Of a DNA stretch of 48,071 nt, positions 14,176-39,583 are shown piece by piece. Each line of letters begins with the position of its first letter. The first letter of the stretch is position 1. The notes below the pieces were generated by a model. It ran no database searches. It had not been told where the DNA came from and saw only the letters and a program-made list of their open reading frames with translations. This DNA is from Verrucomicrobiota bacterium. Its GTDB lineage: Bacteria; Verrucomicrobiota; Kiritimatiellia; JAHIZV01. The position numbers and the translations under genes were made by a program. Location of the stretch: contig JAHIZV010000149.1 of assembly GCA_018814445.1 (NCBI GenBank), forward strand, positions 1-48,071, written 5' to 3'.

Positions 14176-14256
<81 letters not shown>

Positions 14257-25990: not shown

Positions 25991-28165
25991 TCAGTCGGAC
26001 CAGGTAACGCCGTCCGGCGGCTCGTAGGTGAACGTCTGCGCAACCTGGGCGCGGGTGCGTGACGATCGGCTGCCGGAATAGCGGGATGACGGTTCGATCA
26101 AGTGTTTCTGAAGGTGGTCGGCGAAGGCGTGGTAGACGCCGTTGCCGTTGCCTTGGTTGTCCTGAAACGCGGTGAGATTCTTCACAAGCCGGGTGATGGC
26201 CTGCCGCACACGGTCGTATGCTTTGGCGGCGTTACTGGTCTGCGTCGCAACCGCCTTGCTGAGGTGCTCGTCAATCTGCTCGACGATCCGGCTGGCCTCC
26301 CGCCGCTCCATCTCGTTGGCGTCGGGGTCGTCCTCGACCGCCGCATACTTCCGCCGGAGCTGCCACAGCCGGCGCGCGCCGTCCTTCTCGTCCATGCTGA
26401 GATTCCGCTCCTGAAGGCGGGCGTTGCGGCCAAGCGTGATCTTCTTCCCGGTTTCCGGGTCCAGAATCTCCGCCATTCCGTTCTTGTCGGTCTTCACGTC
26501 GCTGACTTCGGCCTCGATGTCGCAGACGTGGACAGGCTCCTTCGGCGGGTTCTTCAGAAGGTACTCGACGAGTGAGAGCCCCTTCTCATGCCCAATGGAT
26601 GCGCGCTCGCCGTCGAATACGATCTCCCAGTTTCCCCGGAACTGCCGCAGGCGGTAGCGCGGCCCTGGGTCTTCCGTGGCGACGGTGACCGGCGGAGGAG
26701 AGACGGCCGGGACGCAAACGACACTGCCGGTTTCGTAGACGATACGGAGCAGGCAGTCACCCGGCAGGGTCCTGTTGAAGATGTCGTCCACGTGTCGGGC
26801 AAGCATGGTCTTGATCGCCCGGCTGACCTCGTGGGCGTGGTTCTTGTAGAGTTCGAAGACCCTGCCCGCGGCGCTCGTCACATCGAGCCGGAGGTAGCGT
26901 AGGCAACGCGCTACTTCCGGGAACTCGGAGAACAGGTCGGCGATGTCGTGCAGGTTGTCCACGCTCGATGCCCGCGCAACGTAGGTCGCGAGCATCGTCT
27001 TGTCTTCGTGGTTCGGGAATGAGTCGGTGAACACGTTTCGCTCGTACTGTTCAATGGGGTCGAGCGATTCCGCGTTGGCGGCGACGATGGCGATACGGCG
27101 GTCGATACACTGCGAGCAGGTGCCGCAATGCGAATGCTCCTTTGTGCGCGTCCAGGTATGGGCGCAGCTCGTTGAAGGGCCGATGAGGTCGCCGCAGTCG
27201 GCCTTGATGAGTTGCTCGATCAAATCGCCCTTGGTGTACCAGATGAAAGGATTCTCCACCGCGAAGGGCTCACCGGCAACGAGCGTGAGCAGGTCTTGGA
27301 AACCCTGAATCACCCTCGGGTGGGTCGTTCGCGTCGCCCGTGCGCCGATGACCTGGGGGCACGTCGGCAGGTTCATGCTGACCACGCCGTTTTCGTAGAA
27401 CCGGACGGAAGACAGGCCGAGCATCCGCGCCACGGTCGCCCCGAGACAGACGTACAGGAACGAACGGGTCCGTTGGGTGTAGTCCCGGTTCAGCTTCGAC
27501 GATTTGTTGATCCGCACCGGGATATGAGTCGGCTTGAACGCTCCCGCCTTCGCGGCAAGAAGCTGTTCCAGAGCCCGGAGCCGGTTGTTCAGCTTGGCCG
27601 TGGGCCTGTGGTTCACCAACACAATCCGGTTCTTCTCCACCACACTTTCCTGAACCGCTCCGGCAAGCGAATCGAGCCCGCCCGAATACATGACAACCTG
27701 ATTCGGCCGTGCGCTGTTCGGCCCTGCGTCACTGAGTTGAAGATACTGCTGAAAAGGTGGTGCGCCGTGTGCCGGGTAGAAGGTGAACTCGAATACGTCA
27801 TCCGACAGGAACTCCAACGTCTGAGTGAGAACCTGCCCGACCTCGGCGGAACGCCACACGTCGGGGCATCGCACCGGGATATGGAGCCGCAACAGCCGCC
27901 GCCAGCGACTGCCCAGCGTGTCAACGTCCAGGCCGCCGCGCGTCAACGCCTGGTCGGCGCAGTAGACGTAGGCCGCGATTTCCAGAAGGTCTTGAAAGAC
28001 CGGGGGAACATCACGCATGAGCGGCTTGTGGATGTCGGCGATCTTCAGGCGCACGTTGCTTTCGTCCTTGCTCCCCCACAGGGTGAGCGCAAGGTGTCGC
28101 GCGCCGCTCTCGCCGGCATCAGGCGGTCCCGCGCCGCCGCAAGCTATGACATTATCATTCTGCAT
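25991..28165 (-). CDS. QueC-like PP-loop ATPase (QatC/Cap9-like) with long C-terminal extension
   Basis: 724 aa; VVMYSGGLDSLAGAV PP-loop; CAHTWTRTKEHSHCGTCSQCIDRR QueC-type zinc cluster; C-term IGHEKGLSLVEYLLKNP...VRQAITRLVKNL...TYEP. Confidence 0.82.
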   Translation of the reverse strand: MQNDNVIACGGAGPPDAGESGARHLALTLWGSKDESNVRLKIADIHKPLMRDVPPVFQDLLEIAAYVYCADQALTRGGLDVDTLGSRWRRLLRLHIPVRCPDVWRSAEVGQVLTQTLEFLSDDVFEFTFYPAHGAPPFQQYLQLSDAGPNSARPNQVVMYSGGLDSLAGAVQESVVEKNRIVLVNHRPTAKLNNRLRALEQLLAAKAGAFKPTHIPVRINKSSKLNRDYTQRTRSFLYVCLGATVARMLGLSSVRFYENGVVSMNLPTCPQVIGARATRTTHPRVIQGFQDLLTLVAGEPFAVENPFIWYTKGDLIEQLIKADCGDLIGPSTSCAHTWTRTKEHSHCGTCSQCIDRRIAIVAANAESLDPIEQYERNVFTDSFPNHEDKTMLATYVARASSVDNLHDIADLFSEFPEVARCLRYLRLDVTSAAGRVFELYKNHAHEVSRAIKTMLARHVDDIFNRTLPGDCLLRIVYETGSVVCVPAVSPPPVTVATEDPGPRYRLRQFRGNWEIVFDGERASIGHEKGLSLVEYLLKNPPKEPVHVCDIEAEVSDVKTDKNGMAEILDPETGKKITLGRNARLQERNLSMDEKDGARRLWQLRRKYAAVEDDPDANEMERREASRIVEQIDEHLSKAVATQTSNAAKAYDRVRQAITRLVKNLTAFQDNQGNGNGVYHAFADHLQKHLIEPSSRYSGSRSSRTRAQVAQTFTYEPPDGVTWSD

Positions 28166-28943
28166 CTTGTTCCGGGTCCGTCAGCATGGCCGACCGCATC
28201 TTCTCCAAGGCGTACCAGCCGAATCCGTCGGCCGACTCCCGCGAGATGTCTCCCGCTTCCTCAAAGCGGTGCTTCGAGAACCAGTCGCCGCTGTACTGCT
28301 CCACAACCACCGATGACTCGTCGCAGTGCGTCTTCATCGCCTGCTGGAACTGCGTCACCTGGTTCGTCGTGGCAAAAGCCTGCCCCTCGCCGATATGGCT
28401 GCTCATGGTCTTCGACAGGAAGTAGCCCATGAACTCGTTCGAGACGTGGGAGAAGAACGACCGGGAAAGTTCGCCGAAAGCCTTCTTCTTTCGCAGGTCT
28501 TGAAGGGCCACCCGGACATCGTGTTCCGACGGCGCGAAAAGCTCGGGAAGCCGGGCCTTCATGTGCTGGGTCACGGCCCGGATCAATGACCGCTGGGCCA
28601 TTTCGCCGAAGTCTGAACGGTCCTTGGTTCCGGCAAGCCGCCGGTCCATCGCGTCAGTGATGGCAACGATCACTTCCGGGAGTGACGTATCCTTCGGGAT
28701 ATGAACGCCGACCTTGGCAAGGTGCGCGGCCGGGTCTTCCTTGGAAGCGGCCACGGCAAGTTGAGTCAGGATATTGACGGCTTCGCGGAAGCCGGTGTCG
28801 TGCTGCGCGGTGGTGAGGGCCTTCTCCGATGCCCGGATGGTTGCGTCAGCAACCTTCTCGACATCCGCCCCGTTGGACACAAGGCTCGTGACCTTCTGCC
28901 ATGTCCGGGACTTCGGGAGTCCTTTTAGCAGTACATGGCCCAT
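28155..28943 (-). CDS. Unknown protein beginning Met-Gly, coupled to QueC-like gene
   Basis: 262 aa; MGHVLLKGLPKSRTWQKV; 11-nt overlap with QueC-like start; GGGAG-type ribosome-binding site upstream. Confidence 0.75.
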   Translation of the reverse strand: MGHVLLKGLPKSRTWQKVTSLVSNGADVEKVADATIRASEKALTTAQHDTGFREAVNILTQLAVAASKEDPAAHLAKVGVHIPKDTSLPEVIVAITDAMDRRLAGTKDRSDFGEMAQRSLIRAVTQHMKARLPELFAPSEHDVRVALQDLRKKKAFGELSRSFFSHVSNEFMGYFLSKTMSSHIGEGQAFATTNQVTQFQQAMKTHCDESSVVVEQYSGDWFSKHRFEEAGDISRESADGFGWYALEKMRSAMLTDPEQDAE

Positions 28944-28967: not shown

Positions 28968-31900
28968 TCACACAAACGCCTCACTGCACACAATGTGCGG
29001 GATTGCCCTTTCGGATATGCTCAAGTTCCGCTGTGTGGCAGCATCCTTCAAGTTGTGCTGGTCGTAGATTCGGATCATGCTCTTCATAAGGCCATCTCCG
29101 GTGACCGAGTTGCGCCGAAGCTGGTTCAACTCCCGCTTGACTGCACCGGTCACGGGACCCCTGAAAACCTTCTCCAACACATTCACGTTTTGCTTAACGT
29201 CCTCGTCGGCCGTCGCCTCAAAAAGCAGCCGAAGTTCCCTCAGCACGTAGAGCTGGCCGTGCGTAAGGCTACCAGTGTAAGAGCGCTCGGCTTCGCGATG
29301 TCGAACCTCTTCGGCAAACTGCCGTTGAACGGCCATCACCTTCTTGTTGTAGTCATCCGGCAGCGCTGCGGCCGCCGCGTCCGGGGCGCACTTCACTGTC
29401 CCCACCACCTTGGGCACGTCCCGCGAGATGACTTCACTATTCTCGTCTAGCAGGAACATTTGCTGAAAACGCCCTGCCTGGCAGAACACGTACAGGCCGC
29501 GTTGAAGGGATGGCCGAGCCGTCCTGATCCCGTCGCGCAAATTGGCTATTCGTTCGTACTCGTCGGGGTTATCCTTCCGCAACTGCCGCAAGATTTCCTC
29601 GGCTTCGTTCAGGTCAAGGAACTCGTCGTCCGCGCCGCCCCACAGGTCCAGTTGGACAGGAGCGCCGCCGCGAGTCTCGTAGATCGCGTACATGGCTTCC
29701 GGGTTGAGTTTCTCGGAGCCATCCAGTATCTCGGAATCCTCGCCGATGGTGTCATGGATTTCCTGAATGCGGTTGTGTAGCTTGTCTTTGAGGCCGAGAT
29801 TCTTGTCGAGTTTGGTTTCAGGCAGGAAGTTGAAGCCGAAAATGAGTTCGTGTTCCGACCCGATACGGTCAATGCGTCCAAAGCGTTGAATCAGGCGGAC
29901 CGGGTTCCAGTGCAGGTCGTAGTTGATGATGTTGTCGCAGTCCTGAAGGTTCAAACCTTCGGCCAGAACGTCGGTGGCAATCACCATCATCAGTTCGGCC
30001 TCGTCCTTGGTGAACCGATACTCCGGGTTGGCCTTCGGCGCGAAGCGGCCAACAATCTTCTCCTTGCTCTTATCGCCGCTGAAGATGACTTCGATGTCCG
30101 GGTTCTTGCCGTCGGGGTTCAGGTTGGCAAAAAGGTATTTCGCCGTATCGGCGTACTGGGTGAAGATGAGTCGCTTCGCCCCCTTCAAGGGCTTTTCCGC
30201 AAGGCGCTTCTTCAACGTCTGGAGTTTGGCGTCCTTCTCCGGGGTGATCGGTGAGACCAGTTTCAGAATTTTCTGAAGCAGTTCGATGTCATGCTCGATG
30301 TGCGCCCGCAGTGCGTTCAGGTCAAAGTCGCCCGCGTCATACCGTTTGGATACCTCTCGGAGGGCGTCCACCAGGGCGCCTTCTTCCAGAATGTCGCTGT
30401 CGTACAGTAGATACTGTGCTTCCTCGCCCGCCGGCACGAAGCCCGCGTCCAGCGACGCGACGAAAGTCTGATGCATCTTGAGGAGCCGCTTCACCGTCTC
30501 CTTGAAGGCGTACACGCTGGATTCAAACCGTTTGAAAAGCAACACGCGCATCAGGCCACGCAGGTTTGCCCCTGCGCGTTGGAGACTGGTATAGGGCTCC
30601 TTCTTTTGTTTCGCCGGTTTGACGTAGTGCCAGAGACCATATCGGGCGTAGGTGAGTTCTCCATCGGGCAGGGCCTTTGTCGGCTTGCCCTTCCGGGGCT
30701 TGCCCAGGTGCCCGCGCAACTCCTGATAGAGCCCCTGATAGGTGTCTTCGATGCTGTACTCGATGGTTTCCAGTTCTCGCTTCGGGAAGAACTGATGTTT
30801 GCCTCCGACCAGCACGTAAGCCTTCCGCGTGCCCTGGAGGTATTCCTGAAAGCGGTTCGGGTCAACCGGTTCGTGGGTTTCAGCATCGAACCCATACCAG
30901 CGCAGGATGTGTTGCCGGGTCCGGCGAACGAGGATATGCGCCAGCAGGTCCGGGAGTTTCCGCTCGGTCTTGTCGATGAGTTTGAAGTAGTCCTTCAGAT
31001 TCGGCGGGTCCACCGGCAAGTCGGTCCGGTCGTCCTGGTGAAACAGTTTGATCTGGTGATACACGTCCCAGGCGCTCTTGTTCCGGGGTGTGGCCGTGAG
31101 CAAACAGCACCGCCGGCCGGTGGAAAGGAAAGTCTGCACGACCTTGTAACGCTGGGTATCCGGGTGCCGGAGATTGTGGCTCTCGTCCACCAGCACGAAA
31201 TCCCGGTCCTTGTACTTCACATCGTTCAGCAACCGAGTGACGCCGTCCTGTTCGTCTTCACGCAAGAAACCCATCGAGAGGACGCGAGCGTTGAGCTGAT
31301 AGACCTCGTTGTATCGCTCCCACATATCCACCAGTGGGGCCGGACATAGAACTAGCGGGCGCGCGTGGTCGGACCGCTCAAAGTGTTTCACGATGGCCGC
31401 GCCGATATAGCTCTTGCCCAACCCAACCACGTCCGACACAAACGCGCCGCCGAAGTCTCGCACCATCTGGACGGCCAGGCGGACCGCAACCTTCTGGAAC
31501 TCAGCCAGTTTGCGGAAGATGTCGTCGTCCCAGAGCAATTCCTGCTCGTCCTCCGCTTCAAGCCGGTCTCGGACAAGCGCGTAAAGCGTCTTCATGTAGA
31601 TGTCGTAAGGACGGACCTGGGCGGCTGCCCATGACTGCTGGAGCTCGGTCATGAGTGTTTCGTCGAAATCCTGCGAATCCTTCCATAGTTCATCAAACCA
31701 CCGAACCAGCTCCGTATGGTTCTGGTTCCCCTGAACGATGACGTTCAGTTCCGTGTTGTGGGTCAAGCCTGCGAGAGTCAGGTTCGAGGAGCCGACAACG
31801 GCAATACCCTTCTCGTGACGTTCGATTTCCTTCCCGACCAGATCAAATACCTTGCCGTAGTCGCAAATGTAAGCCTTTGCGTGGAGCCGTCCTTTCGTGT

Positions 31901-32315
31901 ACACCCGGACCTTCAGCCGCTTCTCTTCCACCATCCGAACAAGGCCGGCGATGAGTTGCTCAGCGTCGTCGGTCTGGTCCATCACGCCCACGGTGTCGCG
32001 CAGATTGTCCTGTGTTTCCTGTGCCGCCCTTTCTGCCTCGACGCGTTTCTTATACTGCTGGCCGTCAATTTTCTGGGCCGCCAATTCAGCTCGCATTTGC
32101 CCTTCGGCAATGACTTCGATGGTCTCCTTATCAGTCGTGTTGCCAATGAGAAGGCGCAGTTCTTGAAGATTCAACACCCTCTTGGCAACGCTGGTCAGCC
32201 CCGAGAGGAACAGGTAGCCCACCGCGAAACGGGCGCGTTCGCTTGTACCGAGCATCTGGCCCAGGTGGTCAACCAACTTCTCGTTACGGTTGTCTATGAT
32301 GTCGTGCGTCGGCAT
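28968..32315 (-). CDS. SNF2-family helicase with N-terminal PLD-like nuclease domain
   Basis: 1115 aa; RLHAKAYICD...VGSSNLT PLD motif; SDVVGLGKSYI, VLVDESHNLR, LLTATP, QRFGRIDRIG helicase motifs. Confidence 0.92.
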   Translation of the reverse strand: MPTHDIIDNRNEKLVDHLGQMLGTSERARFAVGYLFLSGLTSVAKRVLNLQELRLLIGNTTDKETIEVIAEGQMRAELAAQKIDGQQYKKRVEAERAAQETQDNLRDTVGVMDQTDDAEQLIAGLVRMVEEKRLKVRVYTKGRLHAKAYICDYGKVFDLVGKEIERHEKGIAVVGSSNLTLAGLTHNTELNVIVQGNQNHTELVRWFDELWKDSQDFDETLMTELQQSWAAAQVRPYDIYMKTLYALVRDRLEAEDEQELLWDDDIFRKLAEFQKVAVRLAVQMVRDFGGAFVSDVVGLGKSYIGAAIVKHFERSDHARPLVLCPAPLVDMWERYNEVYQLNARVLSMGFLREDEQDGVTRLLNDVKYKDRDFVLVDESHNLRHPDTQRYKVVQTFLSTGRRCCLLTATPRNKSAWDVYHQIKLFHQDDRTDLPVDPPNLKDYFKLIDKTERKLPDLLAHILVRRTRQHILRWYGFDAETHEPVDPNRFQEYLQGTRKAYVLVGGKHQFFPKRELETIEYSIEDTYQGLYQELRGHLGKPRKGKPTKALPDGELTYARYGLWHYVKPAKQKKEPYTSLQRAGANLRGLMRVLLFKRFESSVYAFKETVKRLLKMHQTFVASLDAGFVPAGEEAQYLLYDSDILEEGALVDALREVSKRYDAGDFDLNALRAHIEHDIELLQKILKLVSPITPEKDAKLQTLKKRLAEKPLKGAKRLIFTQYADTAKYLFANLNPDGKNPDIEVIFSGDKSKEKIVGRFAPKANPEYRFTKDEAELMMVIATDVLAEGLNLQDCDNIINYDLHWNPVRLIQRFGRIDRIGSEHELIFGFNFLPETKLDKNLGLKDKLHNRIQEIHDTIGEDSEILDGSEKLNPEAMYAIYETRGGAPVQLDLWGGADDEFLDLNEAEEILRQLRKDNPDEYERIANLRDGIRTARPSLQRGLYVFCQAGRFQQMFLLDENSEVISRDVPKVVGTVKCAPDAAAAALPDDYNKKVMAVQRQFAEEVRHREAERSYTGSLTHGQLYVLRELRLLFEATADEDVKQNVNVLEKVFRGPVTGAVKRELNQLRRNSVTGDGLMKSMIRIYDQHNLKDAATQRNLSISERAIPHIVCSEAFV

Positions 32316-32330: not shown

Positions 32331-32858
32331 TCATGGTTTCCAAATCGTGATTCCCGGAATGTGATCGAATCCACCGTCACAAGTAACAATGTCAGCGATG
32401 GGGGGCTTGTGGCGGGCCATACAGCCTACATGAATCGAGTCACCCGCCATCAAACCATGTGCCATTCGCTCGGTCTTGCTCTCGACCAACGTCTTCTTAC
32501 TTGTTCGCAAGAGCCCTACGCCCAAGGAGAACACTGCTTCAAACTGACCTTGGTAATTCGTGAGAAGCGCACCGCGAGTACGGTCCTTGCTGAGCCATTT
32601 CTCGACACGCCACGCTTGTGCCTGGCCCGCTGTGCCGGGTTTGACAAGTCCTCGGGCAAACGCCTCCGCCAACATGAGCTTGTGCAACAGGTCCAACATA
32701 ACCCGCGAATTCACAAAGGCATGTATATCCGCCGCCTGGACCCTCTGGATGAAGGCGTTGCATGTGGCCGACATGTTCGCGAAGTAGAGCGTGAAAATGT
32801 TTGTGTCGACAAACACACGCGTACCACTCGGGAGATTAGCCAAGTCCAGCACCGCCAT
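32331..32858 (-). CDS. PIN-domain protein
   Basis: 175 aa; RVFVDTNIFTLYF, AGDSIHVGCMARHK, IVTCDGGFDHI acidic motifs. Confidence 0.82.
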   Translation of the reverse strand: MAVLDLANLPSGTRVFVDTNIFTLYFANMSATCNAFIQRVQAADIHAFVNSRVMLDLLHKLMLAEAFARGLVKPGTAGQAQAWRVEKWLSKDRTRGALLTNYQGQFEAVFSLGVGLLRTSKKTLVESKTERMAHGLMAGDSIHVGCMARHKPPIADIVTCDGGFDHIPGITIWKP

Positions 32859-35800
32859 TATTCCAGCAGCTCCTTCATCGCATCCCCAGGCAAACCCGAC
32901 CAGATGCCCCTGAGCGAATCTGCCGCCTTCTGGCGTTTCTTGGCTTCCTTTGGGCGAAGACTGTGCGCCTTTGTCAAACGCGCGTTGACCATTTCGATAA
33001 GGGCTTCGTATACCGCCTCCCGTTCACCCGTTGTGAGTCTGAGCGCATCGAAAACCACGCCGTCCAATTCCGCACGGTCATCCAACGGAGAAAGGGATCC
33101 GTCCTCACTGTTGAAACCAAGCTCATCGTGTATTCGCAGGATCGGTCTGTCCTTAAGACTCCTGTATGGCTTGAGAAGGGCTTTGTCGCAGACAACTGGG
33201 ATCTGCATCCGCAAGAAGTCGGCCATGAAGAAATCCAAGACGCCTTGACCGAGACTCTTATTGCCCAACGTCTCGAAGAAAAAGGCCAGCAATGTTGAGT
33301 TGAGATAAGCCGCGAGTATTGATTCGTCGCCCTGCCTGACGTGCAACCGATAGAACCGAAGGGACAAGTAGCCCTGTACGTTATGATAGATAACGAAAGA
33401 GTCACTGAAGCTACGGGGCACAAGGATCTTGCCTGCCGAAAGCATCTGTTTTGTGGGTTTGTACCACGGCCGCTGGTTCTTCGTGACTGAACGCTTGTGA
33501 AACCCTTGGGATTCACCCCATTCGATGTAGCGCTTGAGGCGGGCTGTCGGGGCGCCCGTCACGACCAAGCAATAGGCGTCGTGGCTGCCGATTTGAATAC
33601 GTTTGCCGTTTTTCGTCGCATCCTTGATTAGCGGGATGAGGAATCGTTCCTCGATTTCGCCCTCAAAAGTATCTTTGCCCTTTGCTGATGCAGCAGCGTT
33701 ACGCACCTTGAACCGCCCCGCCTTCTTCTCTACGTCTGTGAGGATGAAGAAGCCATCCGCACCGCCAGTATTTAGGTAGCGCTCTCCCACGAAGAAATCA
33801 CCGAGGGTGCAGAGGTGTTTGCTGCCCTTCTTTAACAAAGTGAAATAGATATCGGGCGCACGCAGATACTTTCCTCCCCACTTGTTTCCGGTATAGGTGG
33901 TATCTTTTAGCAGCGCGCCGTATTTGGGCCCTCGCTCACGCACAGTGAGTGCTGACTCCTGGTTTTCTTGTTGCACAACTTCTAGGCAACCTTCATCAAA
34001 CAGCGCAGCTTGTTGGATTGGAAACACACGATACTCTGCCTGTGAGTGCCGCTGTGCTGCGCCCTCGATGCCGCGGAACCACGAAGCTGCGAGAACCTGC
34101 TCAAACGGCACCCGAAAGAACACGAAACGCGCAATATGGCCGAGACCTGCTCCCTTGGCTGAAGCCGGCGCTGAGAGGAGGACCATGACGGTATTGATGT
34201 CTGCGGAAGCGAATGATCGGCGGGCCTCGTTATCGATGACAAGGCGGACGTGACATTGTGTCAGGAGAAACTCCTGGAGATCAGACCCGTAGCCAACATC
34301 GAGCCATGAGTTCGAGCAAATGAATGAGAAGGACCCTTTCGGGTTTAGCAGCCAGAGCCCGATGAAATGAAAGTAGATGTACAGATCACTCTTTCCGTTC
34401 AGGTCATGTGCTGCGCGCCCAGTGTTGGCGTCATAGGAGAAGAAAGCGGGAAAAGCTTGGTACACAGCGTTGCGCAACTTCTCTTTGTAGCGTTTCTTTG
34501 ATGTCGCAGTGACCTCGTCCTTTGCCTGGACAGGGTCGGCGATATTCTCCATTCCAACGTACGGGGGATTGCCGATCACGATATCGAACCCGTCCTTTTC
34601 ATCCTCGAAGACCTCAACGAAGGCGATATCCCAGACGAAGGGAACATTCTGCACGGTCTTGAGGGCAGCGCGAGCGGTGCGCGCCTTGTCCAGCGCCGCC
34701 GCGAGGTCATCGGTCTTGGCCTCCAGAGCAGCCCGTTGCTTGGCCGAATCGAGTTTTGCGTCGGCGGCGACCTGCTCGCCAAATAGATTGGATGTCTTCC
34801 CGTCAAGCCGCTGCCGGTTCGCCTTGATTTCCGCTTGGATGGCCTCAGCACGGGCATCCAGGATGTCCCGAAACAGACGCAGTTCCTCTTGCCTGATCTG
34901 GTCGGCCGTCCTGTATTTCCGGCCGGAAGTATTCTGGTAGAATTTCAACTTCTCGTTCTTGAGAGAAGTGATTCGGGCCTTCAGCGCGGGCTTGATCTCT
35001 CGGGATGCGTGAAGCCGGCCGAGATTCACGCCGCCGACCTCCTGAACAAGGCTGTCGCCTTGCCGAATCTTGAAGGTGAAGTGCGGTAGCAGAGGCTCTT
35101 TCCTGACCGCTAATTCGGCCTGTGAAAAGTCCGCGTCAACGACCAGCGCCAGCCAAAGCCTCAGCTCGGCGACATGGCACGCCCAATCCATCACGTCCAC
35201 GCCATAGAGATTCTGGCCGATAATCCGCTTGCGCCGGTCGAAAGCGGTCTCCTTGGGTGCGCCATGCGCCTGGGCGCGGTTCTGGAGGTCGTCAAGGATG
35301 TAGAGCATGCCGACAAGGAAGGAACCCGAACCGCATGCGGGATCAACAACGGTGAGGTCGCGAAGGGTCTCAATCACGGCGCGCCATAGCCCCGCCTTTA
35401 CAACTGCCGCGTCGGCAGCGGTCTTCTCGTCCGGTTCGATGGCAAAGACAAGCTCGTAGAACAAACTGCGGTGTTTATCGCCAACGTGATTGGACAACTG
35501 ATCTACGAGGGTGAGTCGGCACATGAGATCAATCTCGGTGCGCGGCGTGTAGAAGATCCCGGCATCGCCGCGTTCGTCCGCCTCGGCCGAGACATTCACG
35601 AGGCTTTCGTAAACCTTCCCGATCATTTCCGGGTCAACGGCGACTTCCTGGTCGAGCGGGCTGTCCTCCGTGATGGTGAAGTTGTAGCGTTCAAGGAATT
35701 TGAACACCTGGGCGAAACGCGCGTCGGACACTGCAAACGAATGTTTGTCTTCGTCGTCGAGGTGGTTCGGGGTAAACAGACCGCCATTGAGATAGGGGGC

Positions 35801-36676
35801 TGCCGCCAAAATCTTGCGAATCTCGTCAGGGAAATGGCGGTGATGGGCCGTAACCTTTTGATTGAAGGCTTCGAAGAACAGGACTTTGAGCCACTTTGGG
35901 AAGAACGTGTCGGTCGGTCCCTTCGACTTCTGGTAGGTTTGCCAATATGTATGCAAGAACTCGTTGTCCTGACCGAGCCAGCGTTTCCGCTGGATGAAGT
36001 AGAGAAACATGCAGCGGTTCAAGAATTGCAGGGCGTAGTCGTGCGCCCAATCCGCATCCTTGCTTTGCCGGGCGAGGTCGTCCTGGAGGAGTTGGAACAC
36101 GGAACGGTACTCGATGAAGAACTGCTTCGTGACCGCTTCCACATCGAAGGCTTCATCGTGGCGGTCCTGGATCGCCATCGGGGAAAGACCGAACAGGTCT
36201 CCGCCAACCTGCGAGAGGTCAATCATGCAGAGCCGCTCGGCCGCGGTGCGGAGGCGTTCTTCTGGTCCAACGGCGATGCGGCGTAACAGCCGGCGTTGCT
36301 TCACGTCCTGTTCGTACTTCACATTCAGGAAGTGCCATGCCGTCTGGCTCTTGTTCGAGAATACGAAAAGGTAGTAGGGATGCTCGCGAAGAAACTGCTG
36401 AACAATGGCGCGCTCCGCGGTGCGCGACGCGCTATCGGTGTTCAACCGCGTGTAGGCAATACGGAAATCGTTGTCCGCGCCACCGGTCGCGAACAAGGTT
36501 GGATCAGCGGCGAGCCACTTGGTTGCGCCTTCCGGCCATTTGCGCGGGCTCAAAGGTTGTTGCGCTTGCGAGTAGTTGAGTTCGGTCCAGAGAAGTTCCT
36601 TCAGTCCGTTCTCTTTCGTCTCGTGGAGGTGTTGAAGGATGTCGAGAACGGCTTGCTGTCTTTGCACGTCTACCAT
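32858..36676 (-). CDS. Large Eco57I/PglX-like N6-adenine DNA methyltransferase
   Basis: VVDPACGSGSFLVGML motif I, FDIVIGNPPYVGMENI motif IV; start placed at MVDVQRQQ (36676), 1 nt after Mrr stop. Confidence 0.92.
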   Translation of the reverse strand: MVDVQRQQAVLDILQHLHETKENGLKELLWTELNYSQAQQPLSPRKWPEGATKWLAADPTLFATGGADNDFRIAYTRLNTDSASRTAERAIVQQFLREHPYYLFVFSNKSQTAWHFLNVKYEQDVKQRRLLRRIAVGPEERLRTAAERLCMIDLSQVGGDLFGLSPMAIQDRHDEAFDVEAVTKQFFIEYRSVFQLLQDDLARQSKDADWAHDYALQFLNRCMFLYFIQRKRWLGQDNEFLHTYWQTYQKSKGPTDTFFPKWLKVLFFEAFNQKVTAHHRHFPDEIRKILAAAPYLNGGLFTPNHLDDEDKHSFAVSDARFAQVFKFLERYNFTITEDSPLDQEVAVDPEMIGKVYESLVNVSAEADERGDAGIFYTPRTEIDLMCRLTLVDQLSNHVGDKHRSLFYELVFAIEPDEKTAADAAVVKAGLWRAVIETLRDLTVVDPACGSGSFLVGMLYILDDLQNRAQAHGAPKETAFDRRKRIIGQNLYGVDVMDWACHVAELRLWLALVVDADFSQAELAVRKEPLLPHFTFKIRQGDSLVQEVGGVNLGRLHASREIKPALKARITSLKNEKLKFYQNTSGRKYRTADQIRQEELRLFRDILDARAEAIQAEIKANRQRLDGKTSNLFGEQVAADAKLDSAKQRAALEAKTDDLAAALDKARTARAALKTVQNVPFVWDIAFVEVFEDEKDGFDIVIGNPPYVGMENIADPVQAKDEVTATSKKRYKEKLRNAVYQAFPAFFSYDANTGRAAHDLNGKSDLYIYFHFIGLWLLNPKGSFSFICSNSWLDVGYGSDLQEFLLTQCHVRLVIDNEARRSFASADINTVMVLLSAPASAKGAGLGHIARFVFFRVPFEQVLAASWFRGIEGAAQRHSQAEYRVFPIQQAALFDEGCLEVVQQENQESALTVRERGPKYGALLKDTTYTGNKWGGKYLRAPDIYFTLLKKGSKHLCTLGDFFVGERYLNTGGADGFFILTDVEKKAGRFKVRNAAASAKGKDTFEGEIEERFLIPLIKDATKNGKRIQIGSHDAYCLVVTGAPTARLKRYIEWGESQGFHKRSVTKNQRPWYKPTKQMLSAGKILVPRSFSDSFVIYHNVQGYLSLRFYRLHVRQGDESILAAYLNSTLLAFFFETLGNKSLGQGVLDFFMADFLRMQIPVVCDKALLKPYRSLKDRPILRIHDELGFNSEDGSLSPLDDRAELDGVVFDALRLTTGEREAVYEALIEMVNARLTKAHSLRPKEAKKRQKAADSLRGIWSGLPGDAMKELLE

Positions 36677-36677
36677 G

Positions 36678-37703
36678 TCATCCCTCCGCCTCTTCAAGGG
36701 GTTCCGGGACATAAACCCGCTTGAGCGGCATCATGCCCTTGTATTTCGCGTCAAACTGCTCGTAGTGCTGGACAATCAGGCTGACCAGCTCGTCGCCGTC
36801 GATCAGCCGGAGATTGCTCTTGTTCCGGGCCGTGTTCACCGCCTGGCTGGTGAAGGTTCCCAGCGTCACCACCATGCCGAACTCGGTGGGGTCCAGCTTG
36901 CCGATAAGCTGGGAAACGATGGGATCGCCGACGCTGCCTTCCGTGCTCTTGACCTGTACCTTGATGATCGGCGGCACGAAGCCCAGCTCGTCCTGGTGCG
37001 CCACGATGTCGACGCCGCCGTCCGGTCCCGGCGGCGCGACGCGGGTCCGGTAGCCCATCGTCCCGAGAAGATGGGCGACGAACTCGGAAAGGCCGTGTCC
37101 CTTCAACTCCTGGGAAAGCGTCTTCAGGATGAAGTCGCGGGTGTTCTGCTCGATGTCTTCGGCCACGTAGGAAACAGTCTCGTCGTCGCCCGGAGCCGGC
37201 GCGACCTCGTGGCCGGCGACGGCCGCGAGGAACTCGTCCGCGTAGTTCTTCACTTGGAAGAAGCTCATGGCCGAGCCGATCTCGTACAGCGCCCCCTGGG
37301 TGAACTTGGTCCGGGGGAAATCCTTCAGCCACTTGACCGCCCGGCGGTGGGGATAGCTGTCCGAGCCCTTCGTCGTGTGCTGGTACGGCCCGACGATCTC
37401 CCCAACGTGGACGCGCTTGTCCCGCTTCGACGGGTAGACGATCAAGTCCCCGTCCTTCATCTCGTGAACGAAGCGGAAGAGCTGGCCGGTCGCCATCGGG
37501 TAGTACCCCGGCTTCCTGTCCGGCAGCGCCTCGTGAAGCCGTTCCTTGAAGGCGTCACGGGTCGGCGGCAACGCGGCCAGGTCGCCCATCGCCTCCCAGC
37601 CAAGGGCCACCTGGTTCTTCTTCAGGAAGATGCCGTCGGCATCTCCCGTCCGCCCGCCGTGAATCCCCCACAGCGTCGCCGTGCTGTAATCCTTCGTCGT
37701 CAT
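36678..37703 (-). CDS. Mrr-family restriction endonuclease with EVE/PUA-like N-terminal domain
   Basis: GPDGGVDIVAHQDELGFVPPIIKVQVKSTEG (D...QxK Mrr core); N-term LWGIHGGRTGDADGIFLKKNQVALGW...DGDLIVYPSKRDKRVHVGEIVG. Confidence 0.85.
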   Translation of the reverse strand: MTTKDYSTATLWGIHGGRTGDADGIFLKKNQVALGWEAMGDLAALPPTRDAFKERLHEALPDRKPGYYPMATGQLFRFVHEMKDGDLIVYPSKRDKRVHVGEIVGPYQHTTKGSDSYPHRRAVKWLKDFPRTKFTQGALYEIGSAMSFFQVKNYADEFLAAVAGHEVAPAPGDDETVSYVAEDIEQNTRDFILKTLSQELKGHGLSEFVAHLLGTMGYRTRVAPPGPDGGVDIVAHQDELGFVPPIIKVQVKSTEGSVGDPIVSQLIGKLDPTEFGMVVTLGTFTSQAVNTARNKSNLRLIDGDELVSLIVQHYEQFDAKYKGMMPLKRVYVPEPLEEAEG

Positions 37704-37891
37704 GTGTTGTCGGCATCCTCCGCGGCATGGCCCGCGTTGACCCACTCGTCAATCTGATCCTTCTTGAACTTCCACAGCCGCCCGACCTTCTTCGCGGGCA
37801 TCTGCTTGCGGTCGATCCATTTGTAGATCGTGTCGCGCTTGACGCCCAGGTAGGCGGCTACCTCGTCGACCGATAACCATCTGTCTTCCAT
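37700..37891 (-). CDS. Excisionase-like helix-turn-helix protein
   Basis: 63 aa; WLSVDEVAAYLGVKRDTIYKWIDRKQMPAKKVGRLWKFKKDQIDEWV; ATGA overlap with Mrr. Confidence 0.88.
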   Translation of the reverse strand: MEDRWLSVDEVAAYLGVKRDTIYKWIDRKQMPAKKVGRLWKFKKDQIDEWVNAGHAAEDADNT

Positions 37892-38023: not shown

Positions 38024-39367
38024 TCAGCCGGCGAGAACTTCCCGGATGGCCTTGATGTCGCGCCAAGCCGTCTTGCTGGTGGCCTTGGCAGCGATCTCCG
38101 CCACCTGTTCCATCGGTGTCTTGCTCTGGCCGTTGGTGAGCAGGCGGGGCATGGCGGATTGCAGGGCGCGGCGGAACTCCTCCTGCCCCGGCTGGAAGTA
38201 ATGCTTCAGCACGATGTCGGTGGTCTTGTGGCCGGTGACCTTCTGGACCAGTTCCAGGGGCACGCCGGCCGTCAGGGCGAGCGTGACCCACGTTACCCGG
38301 AAGCTGTGGAAGTCGCGCAGGGAAGCGCGGCGCAAGCCGCCTTCCCGTTCGGCGTGAATCTCGCCCCGGACTTTCTCCTTCTTCCCGTTCTCGTCTTCCT
38401 CCGCGTCCTTGAACCCGGCGGCGGCGAACACCTTCCGCACCCGCCAGGTGATCCCATCGGGATTCGCCTGGTACATCTCCGCCTGCTCGGGGAAGACATA
38501 CGCTTCAGACGCCTTCCACTGGCTCAGTTCGTCGTAGAGCATCGGGAATATGGGAATACTCACGGTCTGCCCGGTCTTGTTGGTCTTGACGGTGATGAAC
38601 CGCTTGCGGAGGTCCACGTCATTCCATTTCAGCAGGCAGCAGTCGCCCCGGCGCATGGCCGTGCAGATCCCGACAATGAGCACGGGCCGGATGAAGTCGT
38701 CATCGCGGGCGGCGTCCACAAGGGCCTTCAGTTCCTCCGGGGTGAACGGCTTGCGGAAGACAGTCTCGGTCTCGCGAGTCGGAATCCCGGAGAAGGGGTT
38801 GATGGCCCCGGCGGGCATCAGGTGTTTGAACGTGGCGCGACACAGCTTCAGCGTGTCGTTCCACGTCTTGGCCGTCACCCCGCGGGCTTCCTCGGCGTCC
38901 ATGAACGAGCGCGCCAGCGCGCGAGTGACATGGGCGATTTCCAGCGCCTTGGGGTTCTCGTGCCGCACGAAGGCCGCGAAGCGGGCGAGTGTGGACCGGC
39001 ACTGCTTCGCGTAGCGGGGATTCGGCTTCCGCTTGCGTGGGATCTTCGCCCACTCCTCCGGCAGGTCGGCCAGGGCGACCGTCTCGATCTGCTCGCCGGT
39101 CTTCAGCTCGTAGAGCTTCTCGACCAGGCGGGCGGAGCCGCGCTTCTGCCGGGCCTCCTCCACGATGCCTTCGAGCTTCGCGAGCGCGGTAGCGCGCGAG
39201 CGTTCGAAGGCCGTGTCGCCCTCGTCGCGCAGCGACAGGGAGGCCGGCGGGTGGCCGCCGATCTTGACCCCGAGATTGTCGCAGTACCGTTTGCCGTTGA
39301 TCTCGTAGCGCCCGTACCAGAACGGCCGGAGCGTCCCGTCCGTATTCTTCCTGAACTCAAGAGGCAT
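38024..39367 (-). CDS. Tyrosine recombinase / island integrase
   Basis: GICTAMRRGDCCLLKW (R), HSFRVTW (HxxR), VTGHKTTDIVLKHYFQPG (H..Y); adjacent to attR. Confidence 0.94.
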   Translation of the reverse strand: MPLEFRKNTDGTLRPFWYGRYEINGKRYCDNLGVKIGGHPPASLSLRDEGDTAFERSRATALAKLEGIVEEARQKRGSARLVEKLYELKTGEQIETVALADLPEEWAKIPRKRKPNPRYAKQCRSTLARFAAFVRHENPKALEIAHVTRALARSFMDAEEARGVTAKTWNDTLKLCRATFKHLMPAGAINPFSGIPTRETETVFRKPFTPEELKALVDAARDDDFIRPVLIVGICTAMRRGDCCLLKWNDVDLRKRFITVKTNKTGQTVSIPIFPMLYDELSQWKASEAYVFPEQAEMYQANPDGITWRVRKVFAAAGFKDAEEDENGKKEKVRGEIHAEREGGLRRASLRDFHSFRVTWVTLALTAGVPLELVQKVTGHKTTDIVLKHYFQPGQEEFRRALQSAMPRLLTNGQSKTPMEQVAEIAAKATSKTAWRDIKAIREVLAG

Positions 39368-39450
39368 CGCACACCGCCTTTCGCTGTAATAATCCAAGCT
39401 CCTGAAACTGTCAGGAACATACAGCCGCAGACGGGACACGCGCAAGCAGA

Positions 39451-39532: not shown

Positions 39533-39583
39533 GGCTCATAACCTGAAGGTCGTTGGTTCGAATCCAACCCCCGCTACCAATTT
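39533..39583 (+). repeat. attR direct repeat / tRNA-fMet 3' fragment
   Basis: 51-bp identity to 14206-14256; lacks the tRNA 5' half. Confidence 0.93.

What the first reader, a model, noticed from the sequence alone, without database searches (positions are those of the whole stretch)
25991..28943. QueC-like enzyme paired with an overlapping gene whose product starts Met-Gly
QueC-like proteins occur in Qat and type IV CBASS. Recent work, as I recall it, indicates such enzymes can attach a 7-deazaguanine to the N-terminal glycine of a partner. Here the adjacent 262-aa protein starts MGHVLLKG and its gene overlaps the QueC-like gene by 11 nt, making it a candidate substrate in a system without a CD-NTase or QatA.
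Basis: partly seen in the sequence, partly recalled or inferred. Interest (0 to 1): 0.72.

Follow-up and report, generated by a model that had tools for sequence, protein, structure and literature searches.

The report
Two-gene QatBC-like N-terminal glycine system

Summary
The 724-aa gene (25991-28165, minus strand) and the 262-aa gene (28155-28943, minus strand) overlap by 11 nt. The enzyme is QatC-type rather than plain QueC or Cap9: it keeps SGGxDS, the QatC-specific T278/T280, four Zn cysteines and the QatC fold (TM 0.75). It adds a ~245-aa C-terminal extension that is winged-helix-like in some relatives.

I found about 290 relatives in bacterial genomes and 154 in viral contigs, and examined 159 loci. 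All 148 partners with an intact N-terminus begin Met-Gly (143 MGH), including 43/43 representatives under 60% identity, against a 3% background. No locus has QatA or QatD. The enzymes form one clade apart from QatABCD QatC. The partner is probably a very divergent QatB.

So this is a new variant of a known kind: a two-gene QatBC-like cassette on prophages and islands. The window's copy lies on a 25.3-kb island inserted at tRNA-Met.

The 7-deazaguanine part is doubtful. The active site lacks the Tyr/Asp that read the base. The window's genome, one isolate and four other pair-bearing genomes lack recognisable QueC and QueD, so they have no obvious source of the substrate. No modification or phage defence was shown here.

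The parts
28155..28943 (-). QatB-like partner, 262 aa, starts MGH; candidate substrate
   Evidence: ORF; family alignment with invariant M1 G2 W221 K248; AF2 all-alpha model, pLDDT 86; weak QatB fold and profile match
28899..28943 (-). N-terminal motif MGHVLLKGLPKSRTW (family consensus MGHxRLGxLPxTRxW)
   Evidence: Gly2 148/148 and H3 in 143/148 partners; residues 1-3 have pLDDT under 50
25991..28165 (-). QatC-like enzyme with C-terminal extension, 724 aa
   Evidence: AF2 pLDDT 82, Foldseek 9y01_B E=2.6e-18, TM 0.75 to the QatC chain
28155..28165 (-). 11-nt gene overlap (likely translational coupling), the same length in most relatives
27668..27685 (-). SGGLDS ATP-pyrophosphatase loop, aa 161-166
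   Evidence: invariant in 40/40 relatives
27317..27334 (-). TRTTHP, aa 278-283; T278/T280 are the QatC-specific replacements of the QueC/Cap9 Tyr/Asp
   Evidence: T/S at 278 and 280 in 40/40; QatC alignment; PMC13279940
27107..27166 (-). Zn-binding cysteines C334, C347, C350, C353
   Evidence: invariant in 40/40
25994..26725 (-). C-terminal extension aa 481-724, absent from QatABCD QatC; winged-helix-like domain with a helical insert
   Evidence: beta-beta-beta-alpha-alpha then coiled-coil in the AF2 model; shorter relatives match Trans_reg_C at E=1e-10; the window copy itself has no significant Pfam match there
28968..32315 (-). PLD + SNF2 helicase 24 nt upstream; neighbour, not part of the conserved core
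   Evidence: Pfam/PADLOC; a related helicase in only 12 of 159 loci
32331..32858 (-). PIN-like protein (weak match); neighbour
   Evidence: E=0.022, below cut-off
32858..36712 (-). Eco57I-type (type IIG-like) methyltransferase; neighbour
   Evidence: related gene in 2 of 159 loci
36678..37745 (-). Mrr-type restriction endonuclease; neighbour
   Evidence: Pfam Mrr_cat E=6.5e-24
38027..39445 (-). tyrosine integrase of the island
   Evidence: Phage_integrase E=7.8e-15
14206..14256 (+). att repeat 1, 3' part of intact tRNA-Met (14176-14252)
   Evidence: 51-nt exact direct repeat
39533..39583 (+). att repeat 2, beside the integrase

Best explanation
The pair is a two-gene, QatA- and QatD-free relative of Qat (QatBC-like), carried as cargo by prophages and integrative islands, and most likely an anti-phage or superinfection-exclusion system. 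The QatC-like enzyme binds the all-helical partner. Met1 is removed and the flexible N-terminus (Gly2-His3...) enters the active site, where ATP activates an acid substrate that is then joined to the Gly2 amine. The modified partner, or the complex, then acts or is licensed to act, and the winged-helix-like C-terminal extension may link it to DNA. Shown here: gene pair, invariant Gly2, conserved QatC active site, absence of QatA/QatD, mobile context. Inferred: complex formation, conjugation, defence. The attached group is probably that of QatC, which is unknown; it need not be 7-deazaguanine.
For: Gly2 is invariant in 148/148 partners and 43/43 representatives under 60% identity (12/12 under 40%), against 3.2% background; the loci were found by the enzyme and not by the partner's N-terminus. 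All QatC signature residues are conserved in 40/40 or nearly so, and the whole QatC fold including its QatB-binding C-terminal helices is matched (TM 0.75). Partner versus QatB: hhalign score 36-41 (prob 44-71%) against decoys of 19.5 or less; Foldseek prob 0.82 with TM 0.40/0.47, where other hits have TM 0.1-0.27. No QatA or QatD near any of 159 loci. QatBC alone defends, and the QatB G2D mutant is dead (PMC13279940). Serine recombinase beside 95 of 159 loci, tmRNA or tRNA next to several, and att repeats with integrase around the window's copy.
Against: No biochemistry exists for this clade, and even for QatC the reaction has not been reconstituted (PMC13279940). The partner-QatB homology is suggestive, not proven. 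The partner's flexible tail is short (about 14 residues before the first helix) compared with 30-90 in QatB, and it is MGH rather than MGTS. No complex was modelled. An N-terminal glycine could serve binding rather than conjugation.
Confidence: 0.66

Rival explanations
1. One reading: the enzyme attaches 7-carboxy-7-deazaguanine (CDG) to Gly2, as Cap9 does in type IV CBASS.
For: Same superfamily and the same Met-Gly acceptor logic as Cap9-CdnD (PMC13279940, PMC11996544). Canonical QueC is over the cut-off in 38 of 52 carrier genomes. A 2026 survey assumes deazaguanylation for QatC too (PMC13329287).
Against: The CDG-reading Tyr/Asp are Thr/Thr (T or S in 40/40). The window's own genome (95% complete) has no QueC over the cut-off, no PTPS/QueD and no QueE-like match, but has TGT. 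QueC and PTPS are both missing in six carriers, including an isolate, Tepidicella xavieri (L160).
Confidence: 0.22
2. No conjugation occurs: the partner's N-terminus is a plug or regulator of the QatC-like active site, which makes a small molecule or only binds ATP.
For: QatC catalysis has not been reconstituted (PMC13279940). The evidence here is conservation only.
Against: Invariance of Gly2, where Met is removed and a free small amine is exposed, together with a fully conserved catalytic loop and Zn site. QatB G2D and QatC S156A/S161A both abolish Qat defence (PMC13279940).
Confidence: 0.2
3. The pair is a subunit of the neighbouring helicase/PIN/Eco57I/Mrr restriction-like cluster rather than a system of its own.
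For: The helicase lies 24 nt upstream, both in the window and in the 88% relative L018.
Against: Related helicases are near only 12 of 159 pairs and the methylase near 2 of 159. L010 and many others have the pair alone beside phage genes.
Confidence: 0.1
4. A metabolic QueC (preQ0 synthase) or an ordinary QatABCD with missed genes.
For: Pfam QueC match.
Against: TIGR00364 scores 17.5 against a cut-off of 150.3. QueC motifs are absent and QatC motifs present. No QatA or QatD in any locus. The enzyme clade is separate from QatABCD QatC, support 100/99.
Confidence: 0.03

Closest known systems
QatB-QatC core of the qatABCD anti-phage system (Gao, Wassarman and Kranzusch 2026, PMC13279940)
   Same: QatC fold and active site including T278/T280, D59 (=D63), P(x)4TK, HP and the Zn cysteines; small helical partner encoded just upstream in an overlapping gene; invariant Met-Gly N-terminus
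   Different: No QatA or QatD; partner starts MGH and not MGTS, with a short tail; enzyme has 90-265 extra residues (winged-helix-like); separate clade; carried on prophages and tRNA/tmRNA islands; sometimes in hosts without QueC/QueD
Type IV CBASS Cap9 + CD-NTase (PMC11996544)
   Same: QueC-superfamily enzyme with a Met-Gly protein partner
   Different: No CD-NTase or Cap10 beside it; partner unrelated in fold; active site lacks the Cap9/QueC YxD base-reading motif
[quoted passage not shown]
   Same: SGGxDS loop, Zn cysteines, Rossmann-like core (TM 0.64 to 2pg3)
   Different: Score far below cut-off; catalytic motifs differ; large N- and C-terminal additions; occurs in genomes without the pathway

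Membership tests
QatC | QatC active-site signature (SGGxDS, T278/T280, RxRxxxF/Y, ENG, HP, P(x)4TK, catalytic Asp, Zn cysteines) | tested here: met
   motifs from PMC13329287 and PMC13279940; T278 and T280 are T or S in 40/40
QatC | NCBIfam QatC equivalog cut-off | tested here: not met
   192.8 bits against a cut-off of 280
QatC | Falls inside the clade of QatABCD QatC enzymes | tested here: not met
   own clade 100/99; QatABCD 99/97 (several long branches)
QatABCD system | QatA KAP ATPase and QatD TatD nuclease in the operon | tested here: not met
   no tblastn match in the window or in 159 loci
QatB | Homology to QatB | tested here: inconclusive
   hhalign prob 44-71%, far above decoys; Foldseek prob 0.82, TM 0.40/0.47, E=0.5
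QatB | N-terminal Met-Gly, exposed and flexible | tested here: met
   148/148 Gly2; residues 1-3 pLDDT under 50
QatB | MGTS motif and long disordered tail (30-90 aa) | tested here: not met
   MGH; only about 14 residues before the first helix
Type IV CBASS | CD-NTase and Cap10 neighbours; Cap9 YxDC base-reading motif | tested here: not met
   none among the Pfam-scanned neighbours; Thr/Thr in place of Tyr/Asp
Canonical QueC | TIGR00364 cut-off | tested here: not met
   17.5 against 150.3 bits
Protein deazaguanylation enzyme | NDG adduct on the partner's N-terminal glycine | not testable with these tools
   needs intact-mass spectrometry; host CDG pathway not found in the own genome

The most novel reading that the evidence does not exclude
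A mobile, two-gene immune cassette in which a QatC-type enzyme with a DNA-binding winged-helix tail ligates an acid other than 7-deazaguanine, available in hosts with no queuosine pathway, to the N-terminal glycine of its partner. This would be a previously unseen N-terminal protein modification.
Probability: 0.35. Interest if true: 0.85.

Novelty: new variant of a known kind. Interest (0 to 1): 0.62.

Why it matters
What QatC attaches, and whether QatA and QatD are needed, are open questions in the field. This clade is a natural minimal version of Qat: two genes, found in hundreds of genomes and phage contigs, with an invariant Gly2. It also offers hosts in which the 7-deazaguanine source appears to be missing, so the identity of the attached group can be tested directly. 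It also suggests that temperate phages and islands spread this chemistry.

Tried and rejected
Family libraries gave nothing for the 262-aa partner alone. PDB sequence search for the partner: no hit. Reference phages (INPHARED) and E. coli genomes hold no relative of the tested member; plasmids hold only one, in Leptospira noguchii. Structure against the viral library gave only noise. Apparent exceptions to Gly2 were chased: L064 starts MGH but has an in-frame stop, L170 has an internal deletion, L144 has lost the N-terminus, L107 has no partner, and the rest are contig edges. For roughly a dozen or more loci I took the internal MGH as the start although an upstream in-frame start exists. Deeper QatB sampling in one class gave only 5 genomes and lowered the hhalign probability from 71 to 44%, so I do not claim proven homology. 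QueE presence cannot be settled with one model: TIGR03365 passes its cut-off in none of the 20 genomes, so the CDG argument rests on QueC and PTPS. MAG incompleteness is a caveat. Promoter/terminator scan: nothing above chance.

Full report
OBSERVATION. The two genes are as described. The 262-aa gene (28155-28943, minus) is upstream and overlaps the 724-aa gene (25991-28165, minus) by 11 nt. The partner's ATG is the first possible start in its frame and has a good Shine-Dalgarno sequence.

THE ENZYME. It is not a canonical QueC (TIGR00364 17.5 bits, cut-off 150.3). It is QatC-like (NCBIfam QatC 192.8 bits, below the 280 cut-off; PADLOC QatC E=5e-49; PDB QatC E=1e-29). In an alignment of 40 relatives the QatC signature is complete: D59, SGGxDS, RxR, ENG, N265, TRTTHP, P(x)4TK and the four Zn cysteines. 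T278 and T280 are T or S throughout. In PMC13279940 these two Thr replace the Tyr/Asp with which QueC and Cap9 read 7-carboxy-7-deazaguanine. An AlphaFold2 model (pLDDT 82) matches the whole QatC chain of the QatBC crystal (9y01_B, TM 0.75, E=2.6e-18). Residues 481-724 are extra. In relatives this extension is 88-265 aa, and shorter versions are recognised as OmpR-type winged helix (Trans_reg_C E=1e-10). In the window copy the same secondary structure is predicted, but no Pfam model matches.

THE PARTNER. One viral-contig scan and one genome scan, both with the enzyme as query, gave 154 and 286 relatives; 159 loci were read. Nearly all carry a partner of about 260 aa just upstream, usually with an 11-, 8- or 4-nt overlap. 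All 148 partners whose N-terminus is present start Met-Gly: 143 MGH, 2 MGN, one each MGT, MGQ and MGS. At under 60% identity this is 43/43, and under 40% 12/12. Gly occupies position 2 in 3.2% of flanking ORFs. The consensus is MGHxRLGxLPxTRxW; W15, W221 and K248 are also (nearly) invariant. Even the Leptospira plasmid homologue, at about 20% identity, keeps MGH and LPxTRxW. The AlphaFold2 model is all-helical with a disordered start (pLDDT 86). Against the PDB it gives QatB as the only hit with a raised TM-score (0.40/0.47, prob 0.82, but E=0.5). Profile comparison with QatB scores 36-41 against at most 19.5 for reversed or shuffled decoys. I therefore call it QatB-like, probably homologous.

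SYSTEM BOUNDARY. No QatA or QatD lies in any of the 159 loci or the window. The helicase beside the window's pair has relatives in 12 loci and the methylase in 2. The conserved unit is the two genes. The enzymes form one clade, support 100/99, apart from QatABCD QatC (some long branches).

MOBILITY. Serine recombinase genes lie beside 95 of the 159 loci and DUF2924 in 88. tmRNA or tRNA-Ala sits just downstream in several, and phage genes follow in others. The window's copy is on a different vehicle: a 25.3-kb island bounded by a 51-nt exact repeat of the tRNA-Met 3' end (14206-14256 and 39533-39583) with a tyrosine integrase at one end.

CHEMISTRY. By analogy with Cap9 and the QatBC results (PMC13279940) the most likely role is ATP-dependent activation of an acid and its transfer to the Gly2 amine. 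Besides the Thr/Thr change, canonical QueC is below cut-off in 14 of 52 carrier genomes, and six of these also lack PTPS/QueD: the window's own genome, G243, Tepidicella xavieri (an isolate) and three other MAGs. The own genome has TGT, so it may use salvaged queuine, but shows no QueE-like match. MAG gaps or unknown CDG supply remain possible.

STATUS. Shown: gene pair, conservation, active site, absence of QatA/QatD, mobile context. Inferred: complex, N-terminal conjugation, phage defence, DNA binding by the extension. The published survey of the superfamily (PMC13329287) reports qatA/qatD near only about 34% of QatC-cluster genes; the part of its text I searched has no mention of prophage carriage or a winged helix, and I found no paper describing this clade (only open-licence papers were searchable).

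Noticed in passing
window 14206-39583: A 25.3-kb tRNA-Met integrative island: 51-nt att repeats, tyrosine integrase, D5/DUF5906 primase-like gene, HTH, Mrr nuclease, Eco57I methylase, PLD-SNF2 helicase, QatBC-like pair, and a 1650-aa Ig/TIG-domain protein.
   Followed up: partly
L017:5282-7215 and L185:5267-7221: A third kind of QatC-like pair on alpha-proteobacterial plasmids: partner starts MSDGPH.SLP (no Gly2), and the enzyme has SDGxDS in place of SGGxDS and lacks TRTTHP. Loss of Gly2 and an altered active site go together, and HTH or Eco57I/PLD genes are nearby in some.
   Followed up: partly
L064:2643-3425 and L170:7618-8008: Partner gene broken (in-frame stop; internal deletion) beside an apparently intact QatC-like ORF.
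   Followed up: no
L002:9001-11645: Very divergent MGH partner + QatC-like pair on a Leptospira noguchii plasmid, behind an IS982 element.
   Followed up: partly
L108, L103, L111, L114 (about 10.4-11.3 kb), L109, L117, L123: Pairs sit directly beside tmRNA or tRNA-Ala at the edge of recombinase-bearing elements, suggesting att-site-proximal cargo.
   Followed up: partly
L098:1-6926 and L176:4-6563: PLD-SNF2 helicase plus Eco57I-type methylase recur near other members of the clade: the same defence-island neighbours in distant genomes.
   Followed up: no
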